Origin: Halorhabdus rudnickae
GTDB lineage: Archaea; Halobacteriota; Halobacteria; Halobacteriales; Haloarculaceae
Assembly: GCF_900880625.1 (NCBI RefSeq)
Contig: NZ_CAAHFB010000001.1
Coordinates: 1,550,001 to 1,614,000, forward strand
DNA length: 64,000 nt
Direction of reading: 5' to 3'
The notes under the pieces are model-generated. The model made no database searches and was not told the DNA's origin. It worked only from the letters and a program-made list of their open reading frames with translations. Numbering within the stretch: position 1 is the stretch's first letter; each line of letters begins with the position of its first letter. The position numbers and the translations under genes are program-made. Below, one piece after another: positions 39,372 through 54,264 of this stretch.

Positions 39372-40292
39372 ATGCACCGCCGAACGCTTCTCACACTCGG
39401 GGGGATCGGTCTCGCTGGCCTCGCTGGCTGTCTCGACACGACCGGAACCAGTGACGAGGTGTCGACCGAACCAACGTCCTCGACACCGACAGATACGGAC
39501 ACGTCCACGAGGACTGAAACGGATGCATCGACCGAGACTGACACGGACACGTCGACCGAACCCACCACGGGCGAGGGGAATGGTCGACTGTCGGTCACCG
39601 TCGAACGGCACCAGCCGGCTGTCGTCGAACTGACCAACCCCGACAGCATCGGCCTGACCGGCGGCGAAAAAACACAGTATCTCTACCTCTGGGTCGAGGT
39701 AACCGAGGGGGACCCGCCGATGCGGGAGGACCTAGCGTTTCGGCTCGCCGGCGACCGCCACGAACTCCGGCCGGCCGAGCAGCCCTTCCGGCTTTGGCGG
39801 GCGTACAATCACAGCGAGGAGCGCTACGATGCCAAACGCGGGTCTGGCTGGGTTCTCTTCGAACTCCCCGAGACCGACGACGCGAGCGACGCGGCTCTGG
39901 TTTGGCCCGGTGGTGAATGGCAACCCGATCCGGACTTGCGCACCCGACTCGCGTCGCCGTTCCCGTCCTTGTCGGTCGAGTGGTCGGTCCCCGAGACGGT
40001 CACGCCGGGCATGGAGCCGGCCATCGAGTTCACCGTCACGAACGAGGGCGAACGCGACGGCCGGTTCGTCGCGGCGTTGAACCGGACCGGCGGCGGGATC
40101 GCTTACATGCCCGTGGCGGCCATCAGGAAGTCAATCCCGGCCGGCGAGACCGTCTCTTGGACGGTGACGGACACGTACGCCGTTCGCGCACCGCCGGAGG
40201 AAGAGATGGGGGACGGCCAACCGGACATGGAGTACAAACTCCGGCAACTCGGGGGGCGGGAAACCCGGGAGGTTCGGATCGTCCTGGAGTGA
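39372..40292 (+). CDS. Tat-exported lipoprotein, Thr-rich linker
   Basis: A 306-residue lipoprotein. The Tat signal is MHRRTLLTLGGIGLAGLAGC with lipobox LAGC, followed by a Thr/Asp/Glu-rich linker (about 22-70) that would keep the domain off the membrane. The mature domain is beta-rich, containing VELTNPDSIGLTGGEKTQYLY-like strands and MEPAIEFTVTNEGERDGRF, reminiscent of CARDB or immunoglobulin-like modules. Function unknown. The ATG at 39372 is fixed by the twin-arginine signal; the frame is open further upstream but that is not coding. Confidence 0.82.
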   Translation: MHRRTLLTLGGIGLAGLAGCLDTTGTSDEVSTEPTSSTPTDTDTSTRTETDASTETDTDTSTEPTTGEGNGRLSVTVERHQPAVVELTNPDSIGLTGGEKTQYLYLWVEVTEGDPPMREDLAFRLAGDRHELRPAEQPFRLWRAYNHSEERYDAKRGSGWVLFELPETDDASDAALVWPGGEWQPDPDLRTRLASPFPSLSVEWSVPETVTPGMEPAIEFTVTNEGERDGRFVAALNRTGGGIAYMPVAAIRKSIPAGETVSWTVTDTYAVRAPPEEEMGDGQPDMEYKLRQLGGRETREVRIVLE

Positions 40293-40446
40293 GCGCCGGA
40301 CGTGAGTGGCGCCGGACTGTGGCTATCGGCCGATATAACGGACGAAGAGAACGGGAACGGAGTGGAAGCTGGTGATAGTTCTGAGCGATCAGGATTTCTT
40401 TTTCGTTCCTCCCTTACGCGATCTGCTTACACTCTTTTCTATGCTC

Positions 40447-40672
40447 AGCTTTGCACGTTGGCGAGTTAACGTATTTTGCGGAGGAAATGGGGGTATGAAT
40501 CGGACTCCGTCGTCTCAACCGAGGACGGACGTATTACGAGCCGTGCTTGATTGGGTCGGTTCACTGTCGTTCACCCGAATTATGACCGGTACGACGCCAT
40601 CGATCTCGTCACGTTTTGCCTGCAACTGGTCGCAGTCTGGCGATTCATTTCCTCTAACTAACGTGCAAAGCT
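40447..40672. mobile_element. MITE-like element with 13-bp terminal inverted repeats
   Basis: AGCTTTGCACGTT at 40447-40459 and its exact reverse complement at 40660-40672 bound 226 bp. Inside, the plus strand keeps peptide-like pieces in two frames (DVLRAVLDWVGSLSF, then NYDRYDAIDLVTFCLQLVAV), as in a short internal deletion derivative of an insertion sequence. No target-site duplication is obvious. It sits just downstream of the membrane gene that follows the first halocin gene, at the edge of the accessory region. Confidence 0.6.
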
Positions 40673-40687
40673 AAGTGACTGTGAAAG

Positions 40688-41161
40688 TCACTCGAATTCC
40701 TGTATTCGTTTGGTGGGATGCCAGGGCTTCAGGCCTCGTCGCCACATGAGAACAATCTTGACGAGAACCCATCCGCCACCGCCAATCGTGAACGCATACG
40801 CAAGCCTTGGACTCCCTGCCTGATAGACGACGTAAACGAAATAGGCCCCTATAATTACCGCGCTGAGTTTACCGAGGAACCATGCTGATTTAGCCCCTCG
40901 CTGATACGGGGTGTTTCGGAAGTCGTCGGCTCTAACCCGTTCGATTGGAAACCACGGCTTTCGTCCGTTCCGCCAATCATCAATGACTTGTCCGAGAGCG
41001 TATCCGCCGCCACCGAATAATATACCCAATGCGATTGTTTTTTTGCCAGATTTATAAAGTGCACCCACAAGAACTAGACCGAACAGTACCTTCGCGAGTT
41101 TGGCTGAGACAGTGATGAGTATAATTGATTTCCGGTTCTTAGACAATGAAACAATATTCAT
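40688..41161 (-). CDS. Membrane protein with an internal duplication, beside halocin gene 1
   Basis: A 157-residue basic membrane protein. Two homologous halves (about 20-80 and 95-155) each contain a hydrophobic pair of helices, a GGGG turn and a W-R-x-G-x-K-P-W-x-P motif: DWRNGRKPWFPIERVR in the first, MWRRGLKPWHPTKRIQ in the second. It lies 31 bases downstream of halocin gene 1 on the same strand, so it may be co-expressed and could protect the producer or take part in export. Family unknown; the immunity idea is inference. Confidence 0.7.
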   Translation of the reverse strand: MNIVSLSKNRKSIILITVSAKLAKVLFGLVLVGALYKSGKKTIALGILFGGGGYALGQVIDDWRNGRKPWFPIERVRADDFRNTPYQRGAKSAWFLGKLSAVIIGAYFVYVVYQAGSPRLAYAFTIGGGGWVLVKIVLMWRRGLKPWHPTKRIQEFE

Positions 41162-41192
41162 TTATGGTGGTTCGACTGTCCAACTCTGTTAG

Positions 41193-41645
41193 TCATTCGG
41201 TCATTTCACAAAAGCCTGCACCTGCACAAATTGCCGTTGTTCCAGCCGCACATGATAGTGTACCAGCATTTGCAACGATATATGTACAGAACGCAGCAAC
41301 CGCCCCACCAGCCCATGGGCTGAATACCCCCGATGAGATCGCTGCACTCGCACAGCTGGACAGAGATAGAGAAGCTGCACCCGCACAAGCGATGCCCACA
41401 ATGGAAGAGCAACCATAACAAGAGAGGTCTGGCATTGCAATAGTGACTTCATCTTTCTGCTGGCTATTCTCAATCGATGAGTCAACAACGGTATCTATCG
41501 TTCCCATGCCGTTTTCTGTTTTACCATACGCCTTCATGTCGACTGTTGTCTCACGGGACTGAGCCGATACCCCTTCGGACTTAGGCTCCCGAGTAATACC
41601 CAGAGCGCAAACTGGCTTCCGTTTATTCCCATGCTCTGCCGTCAT
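41193..41645 (-). CDS. Halocin C8-like precursor 1, C-terminal part (microhalocin domain)
   Basis: The longest ATG-started piece is 150 residues, but the frame is open upstream to about 41760 and continues the Tat-signal ORF at 41732-42073 after one frameshift. Readable upstream residues include KRHPAIVHIPFEPTE and RISPNNGGVLLA. The last 75 residues hold eight cysteines (SCYGCSS, IACAGA, SSCASA, AFCTYI, LSCAAG, AICAGAGFC) in a small, hydrophobic, Gly/Ala-rich domain. This matches the C-terminal bacteriocin-like part of halocin C8 precursors. In halocin C8 the N-terminal part acts as immunity protein (HalI), and the C-terminal peptide is released and kills related archaea. Confidence 0.78.
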   Translation of the reverse strand: MTAEHGNKRKPVCALGITREPKSEGVSAQSRETTVDMKAYGKTENGMGTIDTVVDSSIENSQQKDEVTIAMPDLSCYGCSSIVGIACAGAASLSLSSCASAAISSGVFSPWAGGAVAAFCTYIVANAGTLSCAAGTTAICAGAGFCEMTE

Positions 41646-41731
41646 GGCCAGTAATACACCCCCGTTGTTCGGACTTATGCGCGTTTCGGTCGGCTCAAAT
41701 GGAATATGAACTATTGCAGGATGGCGCTTAT

Positions 41732-42073
41732 TTACTTTCTTTTTGTCGTGATTAGCTCGATAGATGCGAAATAATCTGCTTCGAAATCGATTTCGAGTTC
41801 AGTATCGTCATCAACTTTATCAACTAGCTCATTGAATTTCTTATCTTCACTCACGGCTCGCAAATCATTTTTCGCTTCTGATTTGGATTTAACATCATAG
41901 TCAACCACTGTGATATCTCTATATTTCTTTGGAACTCGTTTCTTCCTTTTTCCTGACCCACGTCCTTTCTTCATATTTGGTTTCCCGGCAACCAGACCAG
42001 TGGTGCCAAGAATAGCTGTGCCTGTACTGATTGACTTCAACACGGATCGCCGCGATGGGTTCGAATCAGCCAT
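41732..42073 (-). CDS. Halocin C8-like precursor 1, N-terminal part with Tat signal
   Basis: 113 codons starting MADSNPSRRSVLKSISTGTA, a Tat signal with twin arginine and hydrophobic core (ILGTTGLVAG). A Lys/Arg-rich stretch (KKGRGSGKRKKRVPKK) and an acidic helical region corresponding to the HalI-like domain follow. The frame ends in TAA at 41732 right after an A5 run on the coding strand (41740-41744). The protein then continues in the -1 frame into the Cys-rich part. An upstream in-frame ATG at 42103 would add 10 residues. 77 bp here are identical to the second halocin gene. Confidence 0.78.
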   Translation of the reverse strand: MADSNPSRRSVLKSISTGTAILGTTGLVAGKPNMKKGRGSGKRKKRVPKKYRDITVVDYDVKSKSEAKNDLRAVSEDKKFNELVDKVDDDTELEIDFEADYFASIELITTKRK

Positions 42074-42489
42074 ACTTCGATCTAAACCCCGTTTCAATAG
42101 CATATATTATTTACTATTTCAGAATTAATTTACTAGATGGTATGAAGTGTGCTAATACTGTAGTCCCATCCTCTCAGATAGTCTCTTTCTCTCAAATTTC
42201 ATGCTCCTCTATCTAATTTTCATTGTATTTATTATAATAATAGAACTGGTTCACCGATATATTCGACCAGCTTTCTGATAAGTTCCTGAGATTTCAATAG
42301 TATGATGAGGACAACGATGACGCTGATATTTCCTCTCGTAAGAGAGACAAAGATATAGCTCATTGTTGCTCACTTGTAGGAACTCCTTCGCAGCTGCCTG
42401 TTTTTCCGGCGAATAGCATTATCACCAACATTAGCGAACGAATGAAAAACATCTCCGTGAGATAGTCGGAAAGGTGTAATTTCGAATTG
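42074..42489. other. AT-rich gene-free stretch upstream of halocin gene 1
   Basis: About 415 bases of AT-rich sequence between the halocin start and repeat R1. No gene on either strand was accepted. It probably carries the promoter of the halocin gene: a TATA-like run (ATATATTATTTAC) lies close to the minus-strand start. Confidence 0.6.
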
Positions 42490-42674
42490 GAACCTCGTTG
42501 CGAATCGTAGTAGGTTTGTCCGTCGCCCGTTTTCACTCACTACAATGAAGCATGTCATGCCGGTTGGTTGCCAATGTGAGCGGACATCCAATACATAGGG
42601 CGGCACTGACGACTGCGCAGCTTCCGGGACCCGACCTGCAGAAATCACCAGAGAGGACGACGATGACTGAAACT
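42490..42674. repeat. Repeat R1 (ends in a ProC-tail remnant)
   Basis: Colinear with R3 at 51030-51216 over about 185 bp. Shared blocks include TCGTAGTAGGTTTGTCCGTC, GCGGACATCC and GGCACTGACGACTGCG. The final part reads on the plus strand as TDDCAASGTRPAEITREDDDD, similar to the ProC C-terminus ([15 protein letters not shown]). It lies between the first halocin gene and proC. Confidence 0.75.
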
Positions 42675-42745
42675 GAACCTCCTGCCCCGGAACGACCGGA
42701 TATCGCAGTTGGTATATCCGTCAGCCCCGGAGATGGACACAGAAA

Positions 42746-43516
42746 ATGGTTCACGCGAGCGTCATCGGCTGTGGACACATGGGCGGGGCGATCGTCCGCG
42801 GACTCGCCGACAGCGAGCACCGGGTGACCGCCTGCGACATCGAGACATCGGTGCTGGAGGATATCTCCGGGATTGCCGACGAAACGACGACCGATCCGGA
42901 ACGGGCCGCCGAAGCGCCGATCGTCGTGCTGGCGGTCGGACCGGACGCCGTCGGTGATGTCCTGGCCGATCTGGATCTCTCGGCCGATCAGACTGTCGTC
43001 TCTGTGGCGGCGGGGATCTCGATCGACTATCTCGACGCCAGAACCGAGGCCGCGGTCGTTCGGATGATGCCCAACCTGGCGGCCGAGTACGGAGAGATGG
43101 CGGCGGCCGTCGCCCCCGAACCCGACGCGGCGGTCGCGGCCCTGCTTTCGTCTCTCGGGACGGTCGTCACCATCGAAGAGGACCACATGGATCTGGCGAC
43201 GGCAATCAACGGCAGCGGGCCGGCCTTCGTCTTCTATCTGATCGGCGCGATGGCCGAGGCCGGCGTCGAAGGTGGACTTGACCCCGAGAGTGCCCAGACC
43301 CTCGCCGCCCAAACCTTCAAGGGGGCGGCCGAGACTGTCCTCCAGAGCGACGAGAGCGTCGAGGCACTGATCGACGCCGTCGCCACGGAGGGCGGGACGA
43401 CGATCGAGGGCATGGACGTGCTGTGGGACAGTGACGTCGAGACCGTCCTCGGCGAGACGGTGGCCGCCACCGAGACGCGTTCGGCGGAAATTTCCGCGGA
43501 GGTCGGCGATGAGTGA
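42746..43516 (+). CDS. proC: Pyrroline-5-carboxylate reductase
   Basis: A 256-residue last enzyme of proline biosynthesis, reducing pyrroline-5-carboxylate with NAD(P)H. The N-terminal Rossmann motif is VIGCGHMGGAIVRGLAD, followed by VVSVAAGISIDYL, VVRMMPNLAAEYGEM and the substrate helix DLATAINGSGPAFVFYLIGA. The C-terminal GGTTIEGMDVL is the family end block. In the ancestral arrangement its stop overlapped the proB start (ATGAGTGA). Here proB codons 1-5 follow but the gene is then interrupted by a 7.65-kb insertion. Confidence 0.93.
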   Translation: MVHASVIGCGHMGGAIVRGLADSEHRVTACDIETSVLEDISGIADETTTDPERAAEAPIVVLAVGPDAVGDVLADLDLSADQTVVSVAAGISIDYLDARTEAAVVRMMPNLAAEYGEMAAAVAPEPDAAVAALLSSLGTVVTIEEDHMDLATAINGSGPAFVFYLIGAMAEAGVEGGLDPESAQTLAAQTFKGAAETVLQSDESVEALIDAVATEGGTTIEGMDVLWDSDVETVLGETVAATETRSAEISAEVGDE

Positions 43517-43523
43517 TAGCGAG
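43481..43523. repeat. Left copy of the 43-bp direct repeat (proC end / proB start)
   Basis: The 43 bp cover the last 11 codons of proC with its stop, and the first five codons of proB. The same 43 bp occur at 51174-51216 with one mismatch (A for G at position 9). Left of this copy is intact proC; right of it is foreign AT-rich DNA. It is the left boundary of the insertion and looks like an attachment-site core. Confidence 0.85.
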
Positions 43524-43664
43524 ATATTTTCGAATGAGATAGTCCAAATGAGCCGAATATATAATTCAGGTATAGAGAAATGGTTGAGGCCGGAACTCCA
43601 GAACTACAATGGTAGTACTGCTAGAGTTATTGTATCGAACCTTTGTTTACGTGACTATTTATAG
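43509..43664 (+). other. Chimeric ORF: proB start fused to island DNA
   Basis: The duplicated proB ATG and first codons (MSDSE) run into island sequence and end after 51 residues. Composition after residue 5 is unlike the proB start. It is a by-product of the insertion and probably not a functional gene, but it could be translated by coupling to proC. Confidence 0.6.
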
Positions 43665-43759
43665 CATTAAAATACATATATGGGTATGATATTGTTCCGG
43701 CCATAGGATAAATTGAATCACTCCGAAAAGAAGAAGTATTAGAAAGGAATGTATACGAT

Positions 43760-44236
43760 GTGAAACTAACTATGTTATCACGCCGGTCCCTGCTCACAGT
43801 GTGCGCAGGTGTTATCACAACAGGGTGTCTTAGTAATGAACAATCGATTTCAGAAATCACTTTGAATTCGGTTATTGTACGAAATCTTGACGACACGGCG
43901 CATACTCTTCAGAGTGAAATTGAACGTGATGGTGAATTAATTGTTAATAAAAGTATTGAAGTTTCGGCTCGAAGTGATGGGCGTAGATCGCTTGCTGTTC
44001 TTGGAGAGGTGTTTTCGAAGACGCCAGCAGAGTACCATATTTTCGCCACCCTCAAAGAGTCTGATACAGAGATATACACGGAATTAGGGACTGTTCAAGA
44101 GTCAAATTGTATTAATGCTGAGGTCCGTATTACAACCGAGGAGTCCCTAGAAGTATGGATGGGCAGTAGTTCCGCGTGTGGAAAAATAAAAACTCTGGCT
44201 AATCAATCTGAAAGTTCAACCAGATCAAGAACTTGA
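43760..44236 (+). CDS. Small Tat lipoprotein of unknown function
   Basis: A 158-residue protein with signal LSRRSLLTVCAGVITTGC, a twin-arginine lipoprotein signal with lipobox TTGC. The mature part has ITLNSVIVRNLDDTAHTLQ and [13 protein letters not shown], resembling small haloarchaeal beta-sandwich lipoproteins. The true start may be the second ATG (LSRR preceded by M). Its 3' end overlaps the convergent Tat protein gene by about 34 bases. Codon use is AT-rich compared with the core genes. Confidence 0.68.
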   Translation: MKLTMLSRRSLLTVCAGVITTGCLSNEQSISEITLNSVIVRNLDDTAHTLQSEIERDGELIVNKSIEVSARSDGRRSLAVLGEVFSKTPAEYHIFATLKESDTEIYTELGTVQESNCINAEVRITTEESLEVWMGSSSACGKIKTLANQSESSTRSRT

Positions 44237-45240
44237 AATTCAGGAGGTTTAATTATAATATCTTCCACATCGATTTCATCAGCAGATATCAAATATTCTC
44301 TATTAGACGTGTCATATTTGTTCGCAACCTTTGGACTGGGCTTGAAATCAAAACCATAATCTATAGCTTCGGCAGTGCTTGAGGGGACTGGATCATCTTT
44401 TGTTTGTATCAATGCGCTACCGCGGAGGCCAACTGGACTTTCAGCTTCAAGCTTATACGTGAGGTAAGTTTTTGTATCAACCTCAATATCAACGAGTGCA
44501 CCGGGTTTTGCACGAGCTTCAAACTCAATGAAGTGATCTGTTGCTGGGGTGTGTTCGTAATCGATTGCTCCAAGTGAATCCAGTTCCCAGTGGAAGTCAT
44601 CTTTGGCACCGCGATCTATGGAAAGATCATCAAGAAGTGAATTGAGTGTTTGAATGGTTCCTAGTCCGGGAGTTTCACTAAGAAGAGTCTCAAAAGCGCT
44701 CTCCGCACGATCTTGTTGAGAGAGGTCCTCACCTTCTGCGGGAGAAGCAGCAATCTTACCGTCATTTTGTTCTTCTCCGGGAACCCATCGGCTTGTGCCA
44801 CTTGACCAATCATGGAAATTAATACCATGGCCGGTTAGATAGGGGTAGTAGTCTCCATCTTCCTTTGATTGTCCGCTACTATACGCGACAGACTCGCCAC
44901 GGCCGGTAATTCGGAAAATATGCCCCCATTTATCTGTTCCAGTGGGACTGGGGCGTGGGGTCATCCCATAGTATTCGAAGGTCCCTCGGTGGTTGATCCA
45001 AACACTTTGTCCATACGCACAATAATCTGGACTGCATGTGGTAAATTCACTATTCTCAGTCTTTTGCTGGTCAGGGTCTGTATCTGCGTTAAGACTAACT
45101 TTCGGAAGAGAAGTTGCTGCAACAGAGTGTCCTAATCCGATTGTGGATAAGGCAACTGATCCAGTTTTAATGAATGATCGACGAGATCTGCTTTGGTTTG
45201 GTGATTGTACTTCTCTGCTAGATTCGTTGTTTCGATCCAT
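44203..45240 (-). CDS. Tat-exported hypothetical protein
   Basis: A 345-residue protein with Tat signal SRSRRSFIKTGSVALSTIGLG. The mature part begins with a Cys pair (TTCSPDYCAYGQSVWINHRG) and continues with aromatic, beta-rich segments (GTFEYYGMTPRPSPTGTDKW, HGINFHDWSSGTSRWVPG). The C-terminal part reads DIEVDTKTYLTYKLEAESP. No known family was recognised. Position within the halocin-bearing insertion and its secretion make it a candidate accessory or effector protein, but that is only context. Confidence 0.7.
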   Translation of the reverse strand: MDRNNESSREVQSPNQSRSRRSFIKTGSVALSTIGLGHSVAATSLPKVSLNADTDPDQQKTENSEFTTCSPDYCAYGQSVWINHRGTFEYYGMTPRPSPTGTDKWGHIFRITGRGESVAYSSGQSKEDGDYYPYLTGHGINFHDWSSGTSRWVPGEEQNDGKIAASPAEGEDLSQQDRAESAFETLLSETPGLGTIQTLNSLLDDLSIDRGAKDDFHWELDSLGAIDYEHTPATDHFIEFEARAKPGALVDIEVDTKTYLTYKLEAESPVGLRGSALIQTKDDPVPSSTAEAIDYGFDFKPSPKVANKYDTSNREYLISADEIDVEDIIIKPPEFQVLDLVELSD

Positions 45241-45503
45241 CGCAATAGTGGCTACAATGGAAATGTAGTTTACATTATCTGTTGACTAGTAACGGAATGA
45301 AATCGTATCACTCAGAGAACGATTGGCTACTCATTAAATGAAATCTTGTTCCAATCTGGGTTTAAGATAGATTTCATTAGGACGTAATAAATGTATAGAT
45401 TATTTATTGCATACAATACCCATTAGAACAAGTTTCCGAAATTTGTCACTGGAATCTTACACGCACGTCATTGTCAAGCGTATACTTGCTCGTCAGGTAG
45501 TGT

Positions 45504-46005
45504 TCAGATAAGCTGGTTCCATGCGAACGCGAATGATTTGAGCCAGTCATCAGCTGTTTCTGCAGCGGCGTGACTGAAACAGTTTGAAAACGAAGACGTT
45601 CTGCGTTTTACCTCACGAAAGATACGTTCGACACTGTTCCGATTTCCGCTGCGTTCGTATCTGAAATCGAGGCCATGACGATTACACGCGTCTTTCAACG
45701 AGTGCGATCCATCGATGAGAAACACCGCGTCGTCAACGTCGTGTTTCTCACGTAGCTCATGAAAGAATGCGTGAGCGATGACCGAATTTGTCGTCGGCTC
45801 AAGCTTTGTATGGAGTAATTCGTTTGTTTCAGGATCGACGACAGCGTACAGCCAGTATCGCTCGTCATCGAGTCGGATCACGGTTTCGTCAACCGCAATC
45901 TAATCCGGGCTTCGTCCAGTTTCAGGCTGTAGATCGGCTTTGTGAACCCAATTATGCACGGTTGACCGAGCGCGTTGGACACCAAATACCTCAAGAATAA
46001 CTGCT
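45504..46005 (-). pseudogene. IS6-family transposase relic
   Basis: The C-terminal two-thirds of a haloarchaeal IS6-type DDE transposase. ILEVFGVQRARSTVHNWVHK reads from about 46003, then an in-frame TAG interrupts at about 45900. The remainder is open: IRLDDERYWLYAVVDPETNE, VFLIDGSHSLKDACNRHGLD and NSVERIFREVKRRTSSF with the catalytic Glu. The first roughly 60 residues are missing. The flanking GTAGTGTTCAGATAAG at the 3' side looks like the end of the element. Non-functional. The 263 bases between it and the Tat gene hold nothing recognisable. Confidence 0.88.
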
Positions 46006-46273
46006 CAAATCATACAGTTACGTTCCGAAATTATGTAGTACCGCTCTTCCAAAAGAGCATATTGATACTGCCGTCGCACTCTAACGTAAGATCATAAATA
46101 GGGATCTAAACGGCTTTTTGCCCCGATCAATAACCGGCCGTCACAAACTAAATCGCGGGAATGCGCACTATCAACAATGTGCTACGCAAGAACGCTAGAG
46201 TAGTCTTAGTGTTCAATTTCCTTTCTTAGAAATGGAGGATATTTATGTCTTCATATAGTGCTTATCAAGTATA

Positions 46274-47035
46274 ATGTGTGGTCGAAGTCTTATTCAGGTG
46301 GTGGACAAGCGGATCAATATTTTGCAAGTTGTTTGCGAAGAATATCCAACCAAGCGGGACTTAACTAATGCTGTTTCAGACTCCCGAGCGACGGTTGATC
46401 GTGCAATCCGTGAACTAGAAGAGTTTAATCTTGTTTGCCGGGAAAATGGTTCTTGTAGACCAACATATACAGGGATATTAGCTCGGAACCTGTATATGGA
46501 TTTTGCGAATGCATTTTCGATACTCGAAAATACAAATGACGTGGTTTCATCACTCTCGTTAGATGAAAACCTTGTTAAGGATATTTTTCATGGAGGGTCT
46601 ATATTCCGACCGTCCAATTTCGCACCGTATGAAATAATTGATCCAATCTCTGAAGATCTTAAAGTGAGTAACGAACTAGTCCTGGTGTCCCCTGTCTATA
46701 TACCCTCATATTTTAATCAAGTACTTTCCCAAGGTGCAGAAAATAGCTCAAATGTTGATTTAATAATCAATAGTAGAATAGTAGATATATTGATGGATAG
46801 CGAAAGTGTAGTTGAAAAATATTTATACAATGGTAACAAAATCTTCAAGAAAAACAAAACCCCGAATTACGGCATTTTAAATATCGACAAAGACATTGTA
46901 TATGTATTACTATTCACTACTGAGGGATATCTTTCTTCTATAATCCGGAATACAACTCAAAGTGCAGTTCAATGGTCGATGTCTAGAATATCTAAAATCA
47001 AAGAGGAGAGTTCAAATTTCACAGCTAGCAAGTAA
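46274..47035 (+). CDS. Winged-helix transcriptional regulator
   Basis: A 253-residue protein. The N-terminal winged helix reads RINILQVVCEEYPTKRDLTN and SRATVDRAIRELEEF, with a recognition helix in the second part. The C-terminal 150 residues form an unknown sensor domain seen in haloarchaeal regulators of the HTH/DUF1724-like type (VLVSPVYIPSYFNQVLSQG and YGILNIDKDIVYVLLFTTEG). Strongly AT-rich codon use marks it as acquired. Control of the neighbouring secreted or halocin genes is a reasonable but untested idea. The 268 bases upstream have no gene. Confidence 0.78.
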   Translation: MCGRSLIQVVDKRINILQVVCEEYPTKRDLTNAVSDSRATVDRAIRELEEFNLVCRENGSCRPTYTGILARNLYMDFANAFSILENTNDVVSSLSLDENLVKDIFHGGSIFRPSNFAPYEIIDPISEDLKVSNELVLVSPVYIPSYFNQVLSQGAENSSNVDLIINSRIVDILMDSESVVEKYLYNGNKIFKKNKTPNYGILNIDKDIVYVLLFTTEGYLSSIIRNTTQSAVQWSMSRISKIKEESSNFTASK

Positions 47036-47365
47036 ATTCCACTTAATTACCGCACAATTTAGTTGAGTATTTCTTTGCGGGACTGATCCTTATCCGTTTA
47101 ATATGTTTTTTGAATATTATATTTACCGTTCTCCAGTCGGTCAGTACGTTTCGTGGATAAATCATGATAGGCCCCTCACTACTTAATTTCTTATTAATAG
47201 TAATATTGCTATATTATACTATATTCTGCACTTAACAAGGATATCGCGATATCATTACTCACCACCCATATAAGATATATATATACTTTTATCTGATATA
47301 ATTCAAATCTAATGAATATAGAAATTTAGTAGATTGGACATTCAGATAAAGTATATTGAATTACA
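47036..47365. other. AT-rich gene-free stretch
   Basis: 330 bases, very AT-rich (runs such as TATATATATACT), between the regulator and the left inverted repeat of the ISH3-like element. No ORF worth reporting on either strand. Confidence 0.6.
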
Positions 47366-48754
47366 ATCAGTACCTCACAAAGCATCGCCAGTTAGCCTGA
47401 CCTAAGTCATCTGTTCTGCTGTGGTGAGTCGTCGGTAGCGGTTGAACAACGCTGATCGAAGACGGAGCTGTCGCTGTCGGCGGCTGACCGCCGCCGACGC
47501 GACAGCGTAGCCACTCACAAGGTGGCGTGCCCGGTCGGTAACTACCGGTGGAACTGGTCGTCAGGTGGTCTATTCGCGGGGACGGCCCGACGCACCGCGA
47601 GGGCCGTCCACGTAGCCCGTCGAACCATATTGACGAACTCCTTGTATGGCCACCACCAGAGGCGACGCCCGCCTCGGCGGGGCGTCGCCACATATTCGTA
47701 GTGGAGGTACCGCCAGACGTTCTGCAAGGGGAGACTCACCACGACGTACAGCAATCTCACTGTCGCATCTCGCGTTGTTGTCGTCGCTATCGCTTGTCCA
47801 AGCAAGCGATAGCTCGACTCGATACCGAAGCGTTTGCTGTAGTGGTATCGAGCGTCGGGGGGAGTCTTGATGAACGGCGCGTCAGCGGCGTAGCCGTGAC
47901 GCGCCACACCGTGTTGGTCATACCGTCCATTCAGGTACGTACAATTGATGTAGACGAGAAACTCGACGGTCCCGCTATGACCGTCGAGTTTCCCTGTCAG
48001 GTCGTGATCGATGACGCGGCTCCACCCTTTCGAGAGTTCCTGCTGAATCGCCTCACCCCACCGGATGATCGGCATCACGTAGGCGTAGTTGTGTGCCTGT
48101 AGTAGCGTGAGACACTTGCTGTCGTAGAACCCGCGTTCGAGGTAGACGGCCTTGACCTCGGTGTCAAGGCCATCGAGAACGCCAAGAAACTCGGTTAGGA
48201 CGCTGCTGGCGGTGTCGCCGTCTTCGAGACGGCGACACCGCCAGCGTATAGCGCTTGTTCGTCACACGCGCGTAGAGTGTGGCGTAAGCGTGGAACGCAG
48301 TGGTGCCACGTTTCGCTTCCGAGTGATAGAGAGCGTCTGTGTCGTCTTCGTCACCGTAGTAGGGCCGCAAGTGGAGGTCTGCGCAGACCTCCACCTGCTT
48401 GGGGAGCAGTTTGACGATATCTCGTCGAAGGCTGTTGGCGACTCGTTAGAGCCGGTCCGGCTCGAACTTCGACCGCAGGTGGTAGAGGATCGTGTTCGCC
48501 GACGGCGAGTCTTCACTGGAGTTGCATAGCGTCGAGATCGAGGTCCCGTCGGCGGTTGCGCCGACGAGGACCTCGTAGAGGCCCTCTGTATGATTTCAGC
48601 GTTGTTGGCAAGGTTCAGAGAAACTTCCTCGTCAAGTCGGTTGACGAGGAAGTTAAGGAGCTGGTCTTCGTGGATTTCACTGTCTGCTTGTTGTTTGGAG
48701 TGCACATCCTCAACAAGCCGACATTCTCATTAACCGGCTTTGTGAGGTACTGAT
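47366..48754. mobile_element. ISH3-family-like insertion sequence, degenerate
   Basis: 1389 bp bounded by perfect 18-bp inverted repeats: ATCAGTACCTCACAAAGC at 47366-47383 and its reverse complement at 48737-48754. The length is about that of ISH3/ISH27-group elements. The single transposase gene on the minus strand is broken by frameshifts. No clear target duplication flanks it. It inserted between the regulator and repeat R2. Confidence 0.85.
47542..48705 (-). pseudogene. Broken ISH3-like (IS4-type DDE) transposase
   Basis: Transposase pieces read in at least three frames. DEEVSLNLANNAEI is at the 5' end; then ADLHLRPYYGDEDDTDALYH, FHAYATLYARVTNKRYTLAV and the intact last 178 codons. The last piece includes VIDHDLTGKLDGHSGTVEF and HYSKRFGIESSYRLLGQAIA, the region around the catalytic Glu of the family. 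At least two frameshifts separate them, so the enzyme cannot be made in full. Confidence 0.85.
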
Positions 48755-48784
48755 AATTCGTTCGAACCGGAGTAAGTGTGTGCA

Positions 48785-48932
48785 TAGCTCATTTTGGTCA
48801 ATACAATGAGGAAATTTACTTTCATCAATTGCCGTGCAGCTCGATATTCAAAACGAGGAACGAACTGACGACTGCGCAGCTGCCAAGGCTCGCCCGGCGG
48901 AGATCACAGCGGAGGTTGGCAATAAGTGAAAT
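48785..48932. repeat. Repeat R2 (diverged, ends in a ProC-tail remnant)
   Basis: Aligns with R3 over about 150 bp, from CATTTT..CAATACAATGAG through CTGACGACTGCG to GCGGAGRT..GCGGAGGT. On the plus strand its end reads DDCAAAKARPAEITAEVGNK then TGA, clearly like the ProC C-terminus. It lies directly beside the right end of the ISH3-like element. Confidence 0.7.
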
Positions 48933-48987
48933 GATGGGTTCCTAGGGACTCAGGGACATCCTCAAACACCCAGCATCTTCATAATGT

Positions 48988-49254
48988 TCACGCTACGTAG
49001 ACAACTGCCGCTATTGTGACCGATCCGATGATGAGGCCTAGATTGCTTGTCCAAGTAGCGACCACAATCAAACTCCAGAGAGCCACAAGTAACCCTGCCT
49101 CCTTGGGCTTTCCTTATCCCCACTTTGCATATGTCGTTGTCAAACCAGCAACGACCGCAATCCCGAATAAGAGTTGCTCAATCAACAGGAAGCTCTATCC
49201 CATAGCCGACACGGAGAGTATGATAATAACTATGTCTGAAATTCTATGATTCAT
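48988..49254 (-). pseudogene. Small membrane-protein gene with two in-frame stops
   Basis: From the minus-strand ATG at 49254, 89 codons in one frame give hydrophobic helices: ISDIVIIILSVSAMG, FLLIEQLLFGIAVVAGLTTT and LIIGSVTIAAVVYVA. They are interrupted by a TAG after codon 19 and a TAA after about codon 46, ending in TGA at 48988. The frame preservation around the two stops indicates recent loss. It lies downstream of halocin gene 2 and resembles a small multi-helix membrane protein. Confidence 0.7.
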
Positions 49255-49458
49255 GATCTAGCTCCGTGGCCATATCCAGATATTTCTCCCGGTGAAATGC
49301 ACATTTGCTGGTTATTAAAATATGTTAAATATGTCATGATTTTGAAATAGGTAAATTCATCTTTTCTTGGTGACTTCTTTTTTCCATGAATTAGTCAAAT
49401 ATCCACCAAAGTTAATACCGGCTGGGCTAAGATTGAAATATTAACGTGGGCCATCGCG

Positions 49459-49606
49459 TTAAGTTTGGCGTGAGTTGTGGTAGACGGCGAAGGCTTCAAG
49501 CCACTCTTGAGCTGTCTCTAGCTCGACATGGCTGAAACTATTTGCAAACGAAAAAGTACGCCGTTTTACCTCCCAAAAGACACGTTCGATGGCATTCCGA
49601 TTTCCA
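49459..49606 (-). pseudogene. C-terminal relic of a second IS6-family transposase
   Basis: Only the last 49 codons remain: HGNRNAIERVFWEVKRRTFS, then FANSFSHVELETAQEWLEAF, ending in TAA. They are homologous to the end of the transposase relic at 45504 but diverged, so this is a separate event. The sequence upstream (to 49675) is unrelated, meaning the rest was deleted. Confidence 0.85.
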
Positions 49607-49675
49607 TGTGAGAGTATCTGACTCGCCCTACAACCCGTTTGACTCGTACTCCTATCCGTGCAGTTTTTGATACCC

Positions 49676-49861
49676 CTAGACATAATACCCGACTCCGAAT
49701 ATCGCACCGCCCATGAGACAAGAAGCGGCGGCAAATCCCGACTCACCAGTGAACTGGCTAGCCGGGACGTCACCCACAACGACTAAACTCCCGTAGCCCC
49801 CAACCGAAACGAGGGCGGCAACAACGAGGGCTCCGAGTATCCTTGAATTTTTTACTGACAT
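49676..49861 (-). CDS. Small two-helix membrane protein beside halocin gene 2
   Basis: 61 residues: VKNSRILGALVVAALVSVGG is the first helix, and FAAASCLMGGAIFGVGYYV the second. It lies 15 bases downstream of the second halocin gene on the same strand, matching the position of the larger membrane protein after halocin gene 1. A role in immunity or export is suggested by position only. No family recognised. Confidence 0.6.
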   Translation of the reverse strand: MSVKNSRILGALVVAALVSVGGYGSLVVVGDVPASQFTGESGFAAASCLMGGAIFGVGYYV

Positions 49862-49876
49862 AATCGACTATTCTCG

Positions 49877-50707
49877 TTAACAGAATCCTACCTTATCACA
49901 GATTTCTTGGGTCCCATAGTAACAACCAAACAACGATATTGTTCCCATAAGAGAGGCACACGCTGCCCAGCATCCGAACGCCCCCCATGGTCCACCACTG
50001 AGACAGGCAACACCGAGTTTGTTACATGTAGCCATGGTGGCCCCCAATCCGCCAGCATCGCAAACCGCATTGGTGATAACCTTGCAAGAATCGCAACTCA
50101 TTCCTGCTGTATTAATCGACGAGACATTTTGGACGTCAATTCTTTCCGCCGAAAAGGCTGTATTCGAACTATTCTCGTGGGTCTCCACCGATCGACCAGT
50201 ATTTGGATCGTTCCCGTAGATACCCACCGATCGACCAGTAGTCATACTGGAGATGGAAGAGGACGGAGCGGTACCAAAACCGAGCGTGGAGGCTAATCTT
50301 CTATCTCCGTTTTCATCGTCTGCGACAATCGAAAATAGTAGAGCGCCACCCCGAGGCAAATTGGTGCGATTTTGTTTCGACGTTGATCCATCACTCGGCC
50401 AAAAGGGAAGGACGACGAGACGCGGATCTCGTTCGTTCCAGCGTTTATTTTTCGTGTCGAGATCGGCGGTCATCGTTCGCTCCTTCTTTGGACTGAATCC
50501 ATCGGAACTGATTGTCGCTTTCATTTCCTCAAAATATGAGCTGTCCTGAATCGCTTGCAAGTTACTCTTCGATTGGGAATCAGTCCAAGAAGGATCCTTA
50601 ATGAATTTTGCTTTTGGCCCTTTCCTCCTTTTTTGTCTCTTTTCTCTTTTCCTTCCCACGTCCTTTCTCTTTGTTTGGTTTCCCGGCAACCAGACCAGTG
50701 GTGCCAA
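49877..50707 (-). CDS. Halocin C8-like precursor 2, main part (microhalocin domain)
   Basis: The frame is 276 codons. Its first residues are the out-of-frame reading of the Tat-signal region, so real coding starts after the frameshift near 50600-50640. It covers SQSKSNLQAIQDSSYFEEM, then PRLVVLPFWPSDGS and RGGALLFSIVADDENGDRR (homologous to precursor 1). A Ser/Thr-rich linker with a repeated TGRSV motif follows. The C-terminal domain of about 75 residues has ten cysteines (SCDSC, AVCDAG, TCNKLG, ACLSGG, GCWAAC, GCYYG, ICDKVGFC). Halocin C8 also has ten cysteines and ends with an xGLC-type tail. Confidence 0.8.
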   Translation of the reverse strand: MAPLVWLPGNQTKRKDVGRKREKRQKRRKGPKAKFIKDPSWTDSQSKSNLQAIQDSSYFEEMKATISSDGFSPKKERTMTADLDTKNKRWNERDPRLVVLPFWPSDGSTSKQNRTNLPRGGALLFSIVADDENGDRRLASTLGFGTAPSSSISSMTTGRSVGIYGNDPNTGRSVETHENSSNTAFSAERIDVQNVSSINTAGMSCDSCKVITNAVCDAGGLGATMATCNKLGVACLSGGPWGAFGCWAACASLMGTISLFGCYYGTQEICDKVGFC

Positions 50708-50771
50708 GAATAGCTGTGCCTGTACTGATTGACTTCAACACGGATCGCCGTGACTCGTTCGGATCAGTCAT
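50598..50771 (-). CDS. Halocin C8-like precursor 2, Tat-signal part (frameshifted)
   Basis: 57 codons: MTDPNESRRSVLKSISTGTA is a Tat signal nearly identical to that of precursor 1, followed by a Lys/Arg/Glu-rich stretch (KEKGRGKEKRKETKKEE) and a TAA at 50598. An A6 run on the coding strand (50629-50634) lies where a +1 shift would connect it to the frame at 49877-50707. Together they would make a preprotein of about 300 residues, close to the 283 of the halocin C8 precursor. Confidence 0.78.
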   Translation of the reverse strand: MTDPNESRRSVLKSISTGTAILGTTGLVAGKPNKEKGRGKEKRKETKKEERAKSKIH

Positions 50772-51029
50772 GATTGCGTCCAAAATGTATTTATTTAGAT
50801 TATATATTATGTTTTTGAGACATATAAAAGGGAAATATTGTTTTGGATTATATTATTGATGTCGTCATTATCTCCTGGCGGTTACCGACGAGCTCTGATT
50901 TGAATGTCTCTCTGGCGCACTTCAAGCTTCGCGATAATAGATAGAGTCGAACGGTAGCGAGCACCAACAACGTACTAAACGAGAATGATATACGAAACCC
51001 ACGTTGGTGATGGTTGTACTGTACCGACC

Positions 51030-51216
51030 GAACTCGTTACGGATCGTAGTAGGTTTGTCCGTCGCCCATTTTAACTCATTACAATGAGACACGCCACTCT
51101 GATCGATCACCAATGTGGGCGGACATCCCACACACGGGACGGCACTGACGACTGCGTAGCCGCTGAGGGCCTCTCGGCGGAGATTTCCGCGGAGGTCGGC
51201 GATGAGTGATAGCGAG
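51030..51216. repeat. Repeat R3 (ends in an almost perfect proC tail)
   Basis: Colinear with R1 (42490-42674) and, over its last 150 bp, with R2. Its last 43 bp (51174-51216) are the right copy of the proC-end/proB-start direct repeat. Just upstream, the plus strand reads [21 protein letters not shown], a chimera of the repeat and the true ProC end. It replaces the native sequence in front of proB. Confidence 0.8.
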
Positions 51217-52041
51217 GCGGTGCCCGACGACGCGGTCGAGCGAGTCCGGGAGACGGCAGCTGGGGCCGAGCGGGTCGTCGTCAAGGCAGGGACCAACTCC
51301 CTGACGGACGACGATTCCAATCTCGACGACGACAAACTCGATAAGCTCGTCGACGACGTGACCGACCTGCTCGATCGCGGCAAGGAAGTCATCCTCGTCT
51401 CCTCCGGTGCGATCGGGGCCGGACGGGGTCGGGTTGACACCGGAAGGGGGACTGTCGAGGAGTCACAGGCCCTCTCGACGGTCGGCCAGAGCCTTCTGAT
51501 GCGTCGCTACACCGAGAGTTTCGAACGCCACGACCGGAAGATCGCCCAGATCCTGGTGACCCAGGCCGACCTGGACGACCCCGAGCGGTTCACCAACTTC
51601 CACAACACGATCGAGACACTGCTCGAATGGGGCGTGGTTCCGATCGTCAACGAGAACGACGCCGTCGCCATCGAGGAGATCCAGATCGGTGACAACGACA
51701 TGCTTTCGTCCTCAATCGCGGTCGGCGTCGAGGCCGATCTGCTGGTGACGCTGACCGACGTCGACGGCGTCTACACCGGCAATCCGAAAGCGGACGACGA
51801 CGCCCAAAAGATCGAGGCCGTCGGGCGCAACTACGGTGCTGTCCAGAAGGCTGTCGAGGCGAGTGCAACCGACGGATTCGGCGGCATCGTCACCAAGGTC
51901 GAGGGCGCGCGAACGGTCAACGAGCACGGCATCCCGGCGGTGATCGCGGGCTCGGCCGAACCTGCCGTCCTCGACCGGATCGCCCGCGCGGAACCGGTGG
52001 GCACAATATTCCTGCCTGTCAATGGGGCGTACGATGACTGA
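51202..52041 (+). CDS. proB: Glutamate 5-kinase
   Basis: A 279-residue kinase phosphorylating glutamate for proline synthesis. [15 protein letters not shown] is the nucleotide-binding start; [27 protein letters not shown]-like [16 protein letters not shown] and [19 protein letters not shown] follow, then [14 protein letters not shown]. No PUA domain, as usual in archaea. It overlaps proA. The proC-like tail in front of its ATG is the right end of the insertion, so its original coupling to proC is lost and any promoter must lie in repeat R3 or upstream. Confidence 0.94.
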
Positions 52042-53775: not shown

Positions 53776-54264
53776 TCACGCCATCACGACCCGAACGTCG
53801 TGGGCCTGGTCGTCCCCGAAGGCGGGCACGACGGTGCCATCGATGGTGTCGCCGTTGACCTCGACAGTCTCGACGCTTGATTCGACACCGTCGGGGTTCT
53901 CAACGCTGATCTCGTCGGTCGTCCCACGGAACTCACGGGTCATCTCGAAGTCGTCCCAGTCGGCCGGGATCGACGGGTCGATCACGAACCCGTCGTGATC
54001 TGGTCCAACGCCGAGGATGTAACGGGTGAGCACGACGTAGTTCCAGGCCGCCGTCCCGGCCAGCCAGGAGTTCTTGGCCTCGCCGGTGGTCTGAGCGTCC
54101 GAGCCGGCGATGGTCTGGGCGTAGACGAACTGCCCGGCGATGAACATCGACTCGGCGCGCTCCTCGGGGACGTCGTGTTCGGCCGTCTGGAAAGATTCGG
54201 TGTCTGTGAGTTGTTCGCGGAGATCCGTCGGACCCTCGACGTGTGTGCCATTCCCTAGATGATA
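53776..54264 (-). pseudogene. C-terminal relic of a GH94-type glycoside phosphorylase
   Basis: The open minus-strand frame reads TDLREQLTDTESFQTAEHDV and MFIAGQFVYAQTIAGSDAQT. Then follow EAKNSWLAGTAAWNYVVLTR, GFVIDPSIPADWDDFEMTRE and FGDDQAHDVRVVMA. This is the C-terminal (alpha/alpha)6 end plus beta-sandwich tail of cellobiose-phosphorylase-like GH94 enzymes. The N-terminal about 600-700 residues and the catalytic Asp are absent, and a stop lies upstream. A remnant of sugar metabolism. Confidence 0.8.

What the first reader, a model, noticed from the sequence alone, without database searches (positions are those of the whole stretch)
49877..50771. Second, ten-cysteine halocin-C8-like gene inside the proC-proB insertion
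This copy has ten cysteines in its last 75 residues, like halocin C8, and a near-identical Tat signal to the first. The linker has a repeated TGRSV motif. Two divergent paralogues within 9 kb suggest a locus diversifying its toxin and immunity repertoire.
Basis: partly seen in the sequence, partly recalled or inferred. Interest (0 to 1): 0.78.

Follow-up and report, generated by a model that had tools for sequence, protein, structure and literature searches.

The report
Frameshifted halocin-like gene in toxin-exchange locus
A salt-loving archaeon carries, beside its proline-synthesis genes, a broken gene for a small cysteine-rich antimicrobial protein; the same spot in sister species holds different toxin-like genes behind the same secretion tag, which suggests a site where toxins are swapped.

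Summary
The gene is real. The last 76 residues (10 Cys) match NCBIfam TIGR04449, halocin C8-like domain, at 37.7 bits (cut-off 24), and the first 40 residues are a Tat signal 85% identical to copy 1. It is not intact as assembled: the signal ORF (50598-50771) and the toxin ORF (ending 49877) lie in different frames. Copy 1 is also frameshifted. Relatives are single ORFs.

The two copies are not plain paralogues. They share DNA only over the first 126 bp (90%); their middle and Cys-rich domains are 25% and 27% identical. Each matches a gene in another genus or family better (copy 2 to G009, 63% in the Cys domain; copy 1 to G320, 50%). Each is followed by its own small membrane protein, also found in that relative, a candidate immunity protein.

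The genus is Halorhabdus. H. amylolytica has an empty proC-proB junction; five other species and this one have an insert there with a conserved ~200-bp element. G005 carries a third, unrelated toxin-like gene plus partner behind the same signal. I read the locus as a polymorphic-toxin-like cassette site; the window's version is decaying. A saposin-like fold is only a weak lead.

The parts
50598..50771 (-). 5' ORF of copy 2: Tat signal peptide plus Lys/Arg-rich linker (57 codons, then stop)
   Evidence: RRSVLK twin-arginine motif; 34/40 residues identical to copy 1
49877..50735 (-). 3' ORF of copy 2 in the other frame: middle domain plus 76-residue 10-Cys halocin C8-like domain (domain about 49880-50095)
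   Evidence: TIGR04449 37.7 bits; 44% identical over 237 aa to the single-ORF relative in G009
49676..49861 (-). 61-aa two-TM protein 15 nt after the toxin stop; candidate immunity protein
   Evidence: Homologue sits 4 nt after the intact relative in G009 (28% id over 54 aa, E 7e-8)
41732..42073 (-). 5' ORF of copy 1: same Tat signal plus first part of the middle domain
41193..41741 (-). 3' ORF of copy 1 (frameshifted relative to the 5' ORF): middle domain plus 8-Cys halocin-like domain
   Evidence: TIGR04449 24.6 bits, cut-off 24; 41% identical over 181 aa to G320
40688..41161 (-). 157-aa internally duplicated membrane protein after copy 1; candidate partner/immunity
   Evidence: 38% identical over 108 aa, E 4e-24, to the gene after the copy-1-type toxin in G320, which has an internal stop
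50980..51209 (.). R3: conserved intergenic element between the toxin promoter side and proB, ending in a ~40-bp duplication of the proC 3' end; holds a 22-nt core
   Evidence: 75-88% identical in G003-G006, 77% in G002; absent from the empty site in G001
42488..42685 (.). R1: second copy of R, upstream of proC and of copy 1, extending into a proB-like 5' end
48749..48936 (.). R2: degenerate third copy of R inside the insert
43466..43523 (+). proC 3' end at the left border, duplicated at 51159-51216
   Evidence: 86% identity over 58 bp; single copy in the empty site of G001
48979..49254 (-). Small membrane protein gene, constant member of the locus; three in-frame stops here, intact in G002-G006
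44203..45240 (-). 345-aa Tat-signal protein in the same insert; toxin candidate
   Evidence: 37% identical to a Halorussus pelagicus plasmid protein next to a tyrosine recombinase gene; C-terminal remnant in G002 at the same site
43760..44236 (+). Lipoprotein-like gene convergent with the 345-aa gene; candidate partner
   Evidence: 30% identical to the convergent neighbour in Halorussus
46274..47035 (+). HTH regulator (HVO_A0261_N and FilR1_middle domains)
   Evidence: Pfam above cut-off

Best explanation
Copy 2 is a halocin-C8-like (TIGR04449) secreted peptide precursor: a Tat signal exports it, the C-terminal 76-residue Cys-rich part would be released by proteolysis and act on related archaea, and a two-TM protein encoded directly downstream would protect the producer. 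It sits in a Halorhabdus-specific exchange site at the proC-proB junction. There a constant block (proB start, R element, promoter, Tat signal) and a constant membrane-protein gene flank interchangeable toxin-plus-partner modules, which are swapped by recombination just after the signal. In this genome the toxin ORFs are frameshifted and the constant membrane gene has stops, so the locus is probably decaying. Shown: domain membership, frameshifts in the assembly, shared signal with unrelated downstream parts, partner conservation, empty and occupied sites. Inferred: export, cleavage, killing, immunity, exchange by recombination, inactivity.
For: TIGR04449 hit. Single-ORF relatives in G009, G320, G287. 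Domain-wise identity: copy1-copy2 85/25/27% (signal/middle/Cys), copy2-G009 30/36/63%, copy1-G320 32/39/50%, copy1-G005 toxin 85% signal only. G005 matches the window from proB to the signal (73% over 575 bp) and then diverges; its toxin and downstream partner travel as a pair in G366, G364 and G285, in G366 behind a different signal. Toxin type matches partner type in window/G009 and window/G320. Small multi-TM gene within 150 bp downstream in 11 of 22 domain clusters versus 10 of 148 control genes, Fisher p=2e-6. Empty site in G001. No frameshift in ~4,965 conserved codons of the window compared with G001; three stops in the constant gene.
Against: No activity or immunity data. Canonical halocin C8 loci lack the membrane partner, so immunity could lie in the precursor's middle domain. 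Only one other species (G005) carries a toxin behind this exact signal, so exchange rests on few cases. The 5' parts could share identity by gene conversion alone.
Confidence: 0.62

Rival explanations
1. The frameshifts are sequencing or assembly errors in A/G-rich runs; both precursors are intact and functional in the organism.
For: Both shifts lie in A-rich stretches; the reading frames beyond the shift are otherwise open for 243 and 183 codons and align smoothly with relatives.
Against: No frameshift in about 4,965 conserved codons of the same window; the neighbouring constant membrane gene carries three in-frame stops, not indels, which shows real decay at the locus.
Confidence: 0.2
2. Programmed ribosomal frameshifting joins signal and toxin, so that export of the toxin is regulated.
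For: Both copies are interrupted between signal and toxin domain, and copy 2 has an A-rich run (gacaaaaaagg) in the overlap.
Against: The two shifts are in opposite directions and at different places; the single-ORF relatives in G009, G320, G287 and the G005 toxin need no shift.
Confidence: 0.05
3. Plain tandem duplication followed by divergence of the toxin half under selection, with the signal kept similar by constraint.
For: The copies lie 9 kb apart, with R and the signal duplicated.
Against: DNA identity drops abruptly from 90% to undetectable at the end of the signal; each toxin half is nearer to genes of other genera or families; the downstream partners are unrelated to each other.
Confidence: 0.1
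4. Self-protection is encoded in the precursor's middle domain, as for HalI of halocin C8, and the small membrane proteins do something else (export, processing).
For: The G009 precursor aligns over its whole length with a canonical halocin C8 precursor (24.5%, E 4e-8); HalI immunity is reported for halocin C8 (Sun 2005, Mei 2008, as cited in PMC11509114 and PMC8628083).
Against: The canonical cluster, which has HalI, lacks the membrane partner, while half of the other clusters have one, of a matching type in the two cases compared.
Confidence: 0.3

Closest known systems
Halocin C8 precursor ProC8 / NCBIfam TIGR04449
   Same: Tat signal, middle domain, C-terminal Cys-rich domain with 10 Cys ending in C-x5-C
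   Different: Only about 24% identical in the middle and Cys domains; frameshifted here; separate membrane protein downstream
Polymorphic toxin systems (Zhang et al. 2012, PMC3482391; archaeal cases Makarova et al. 2019, text not held)
   Same: Constant N-terminal part with exchangeable C-terminal toxin and adjacent partner gene
   Different: The constant part is only a Tat signal with its upstream DNA; the toxin is a short secreted peptide; no large trafficking domains; a fixed chromosomal site with a conserved element
Saposin-like bacteriocins (enterocin AS-48 group, PMC7559574)
   Same: Helical membrane-active small protein as a possible analogy; Foldseek hits of the copy-2 model are mostly saposins
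   Different: No significant E-value; the canonical halocin C8 model does not hit saposins; disulfide-rich, Tat-exported

Membership tests
Halocin C8-like domain (TIGR04449) | Score above the curated cut-off over the whole 69-position model | tested here: met
   37.7 bits, cut-off 24, positions 1-69; 41 bits in the genome search
Halocin C8-like domain (TIGR04449) | Conserved cysteines of the mature domain | tested here: met
   10 Cys; all 7 columns invariant in the 20-sequence alignment A2 are present
Halocin C8 precursor (single gene) | One open frame: Tat signal, middle domain, C-terminal toxin | tested here: not met
   The parts are in order but in two frames; the relative in G009 is one ORF
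Halocin C8 precursor (single gene) | Middle domain homologous to the HalI immunity domain | tested here: inconclusive
   Copy 2 to a canonical precursor 24% in the middle; whole-length match only through the G009 relative (24.5%, E 4e-8)
Halocin (functional definition) | Secreted, processed, kills related haloarchaea | not testable with these tools
   No expression or activity data
Polymorphic toxin system | Same N-terminal region joined to unrelated C-terminal parts at one locus | tested here: met
   Copy 1, copy 2 and the G005 toxin share the signal (80-85%) with unrelated or 25-27% identical remainders
Polymorphic toxin system | Adjacent cognate partner gene that changes with the toxin type | tested here: met
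   the immunity function itself was not testable
Polymorphic toxin system | Large trafficking or delivery domains in the toxin protein | tested here: not met
   Precursors of 267-299 aa; no Pfam domain above cut-off in the two window copies or the G005 toxin
Saposin-like proteins | Fold or profile match to saposins | tested here: inconclusive
   Foldseek: 11 of 13 PDB hits are saposin-like but E 0.38-7.5; hhalign matches only the 12 C-terminal columns, probability 6%; canonical halocin C8 model hits none

The most novel reading that the evidence does not exclude
The proC-proB junction of Halorhabdus is a dedicated exchange site for secreted archaeal toxins. A fixed promoter and Tat signal, flanked by a genus-specific conserved element with an invariant 22-nt core, is coupled by recombination to different toxin-plus-immunity modules, giving species different peptide weapons at one address. 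The copy-2 type of mature domain may have a saposin-like, membrane-disrupting fold.
Probability: 0.4. Interest if true: 0.72.

Novelty: new variant of a known kind. Interest (0 to 1): 0.55.

Why it matters
Of the halocins, halocin C8 is described as the best characterised at the molecular level (PMC11509114), and its immunity is reported to lie in the precursor itself. If half of the wider family instead carries small membrane partners, immunity and target become directly testable by expressing pairs and mispairs. A single chromosomal site holding different toxins behind one signal in sister species would show how archaea change their secreted weapons, as polymorphic toxin loci do in bacteria. 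It also warns that the window's own two genes, as assembled, should not be treated as functional halocins.

Tried and rejected
The search for related loci with alignment A1 in genome contigs: 57 pattern matches, no relative. Plasmid collection: no match for copy 2 or for the copy-1 partner. Rfam on 40000-52000: nothing at E <= 0.1, so R is no known RNA family. PDB profile search with the mature domain: no match, so no solved sequence relative. Saposin homology: suggestive Foldseek list for the copy-2 model and a saposin-like C-terminal C-x5-C motif, but profile comparison is weak and the canonical halocin C8 model does not support it, so it is kept only as a lead. BFVD search: nothing. Pfam and NCBIfam on the G005 toxin, its partner and the small membrane protein: nothing above cut-off. 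Makarova et al. 2019 and Mei et al. 2008 are not in the held library, so how much of the partner pattern was already described there could not be checked.

Full report
WHAT IS THERE. On the minus strand, a 57-codon ORF starts at 50771 with a twin-arginine signal (MTDPNESRRSVLKSISTGTAILGTTGLVAGKPN...) and stops at 50598. The frame ending at 49877 is open from upstream of 50707 and encodes a middle domain with two TGRSV motifs and a 76-residue C-terminal part with ten cysteines. That part matches NCBIfam TIGR04449, halocin C8-like domain, at 37.7 bits (cut-off 24) over the whole model; copy 1 matches at 24.6 bits. These are the only two matches in the genome. Seven cysteines are invariant across the 20 family members aligned here.

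BROKEN IN THIS ASSEMBLY. The signal and toxin parts of copy 2 lie in different frames (net +1), somewhere in the purine-rich stretch before 50598. Copy 1 has a shift in the other direction near 41735, inside its middle domain. Relatives in G009, G320 and G287 are single ORFs that align smoothly across both points. In the same window 17 conserved genes or gene parts, about 4,965 codons, show no frameshift against the close relative G001, and a neighbouring membrane-protein gene that is intact in five congeners has three in-frame stops here. I therefore favour real decay, without excluding local sequencing errors.

NOT PLAIN PARALOGUES. Copies 1 and 2 are 90.5% identical over the first 126 bp of the gene (41948-42073 and 50647-50771) and have no detectable DNA similarity after that. 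By domain (signal/middle/Cys part), copy 1 to copy 2 is 85/25/27%; copy 2 to G009 (another genus of the family) is 30/36/63%; copy 1 to G320 (another family) is 32/39/50%. The precursor halves are related to each other (blastp E about 1e-16), so they are distant members of one family that share a local signal sequence.

PARTNER GENES. Fifteen nucleotides after copy 2 lies a 61-aa protein with two hydrophobic segments; the G009 relative is followed after 4 nt by a homologous 81- to 84-aa protein. Copy 1 is followed by a 157-aa internally duplicated membrane protein whose homologue follows the copy-1-type toxin in G320, although with an internal stop there. Among 22 clusters of the domain, 11 have a 50- to 165-aa protein with at least two TM segments within 150 bp downstream on the same strand, against 10 of 148 control genes (Fisher p=2e-6). 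The cluster holding canonical halocin C8, whose immunity is reported to be part of its own precursor, has none. Immunity is the natural guess for these partners; it is not shown.

THE SITE. In G001 the proC stop overlaps the proB start, an empty site. In the other five congeners proC and proB are separated by an insert: about 0.6-2.4 kb in G003-G006, and of unknown length in G002, where the contigs break. Each insert carries a small membrane-protein gene and a roughly 180- to 230-bp element (R) ending in a copy of the proC 3' end. A 22-nt core of R occurs once in each of these five genomes, twice here, never in G001, and in none of the other 377 genomes of the order that were scanned. The window has R next to proB (R3), a degenerate internal copy (R2), and a copy upstream of proC next to copy 1 (R1) that runs into a proB-like start, which suggests that copy 1 was moved there from a proC-proB site (inference).

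EXCHANGE. In G005 the same site has the same block from proB through R to the Tat signal (73% over 575 bp), followed by an unrelated 299-aa precursor and a 241-aa downstream gene. Matches to that toxin, several of them partial, occur in 18 other genomes, and in G366, G364 and G285 a homologue of the 241-aa gene lies beside it, in G366 behind a different signal. In G002 the site holds remnants of the window's third toxin candidate, a 345-aa Tat protein with a convergent lipoprotein-like gene; that pair also occurs on a Halorussus plasmid near a recombinase gene. The simplest reading is a locus with constant ends and exchangeable toxin-plus-partner modules, analogous to polymorphic toxin systems but built on a Tat signal and short secreted proteins.

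STRUCTURE LEAD. AlphaFold2 gives four helices for the copy-2 mature domain (mean pLDDT 69.5); 11 of its 13 Foldseek PDB matches are saposin-like proteins, none significant (E at least 0.38; TM-score up to 0.66). The terminal cysteine motifs resemble saposins, but profile comparison aligns only the last 12 columns, and the model of a canonical halocin C8 domain (pLDDT 78.8) does not match saposins. This is a lead, not a result.

KNOWN AND NEW. The halocin C8 domain family is known and curated; from memory, Makarova et al. 2019 expanded it and described archaeal polymorphic toxins, but that paper could not be read here, and the adjacent-partner pattern may already be in it.

Noticed in passing
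window 44203-45240 (-) and 43760-44236 (+): 345-aa Tat-signal protein and a convergent lipoprotein-like gene form a pair conserved on a Halorussus pelagicus plasmid (NZ_CP035120.1), next to a tyrosine recombinase gene there; a remnant occurs in Halorhabdus salina. Possibly another toxin and its protector.
   Followed up: partly
window 42507 and 51046; G002-G006: Invariant 22-nt sequence GTAGTAGGTTTGTCCGTCGCCC found only in Halorhabdus proC-proB inserts; function unknown (promoter, regulator site or recombination site).
   Followed up: partly
window 40441-40676: Short element with inverted ends (AGCTTTGCACGTT), looks like a miniature transposable element (read by eye).
   Followed up: no
window 45504-45881, 47542-48078, 48262-48705, 49459-49605: Fragments that look like degenerate transposase genes within the insert (naming by eye); 45529-45647 and 49487-49605 are 74% identical.
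   Followed up: no
window 46274-47035: HTH regulator with HVO_A0261_N and FilR1_middle domains; regulators of arCOG02808 are reported near archaeocin genes (PMC8416519); whether this gene belongs there was not tested.
   Followed up: no
window 53776-54147: C-terminal remnant (75% identical) of an 815-aa protein that is intact in H. amylolytica.
   Followed up: no
L083 (G004): The proC-proB insert also carries an unrelated membrane-protein ORF in the other orientation (read by eye).
   Followed up: no
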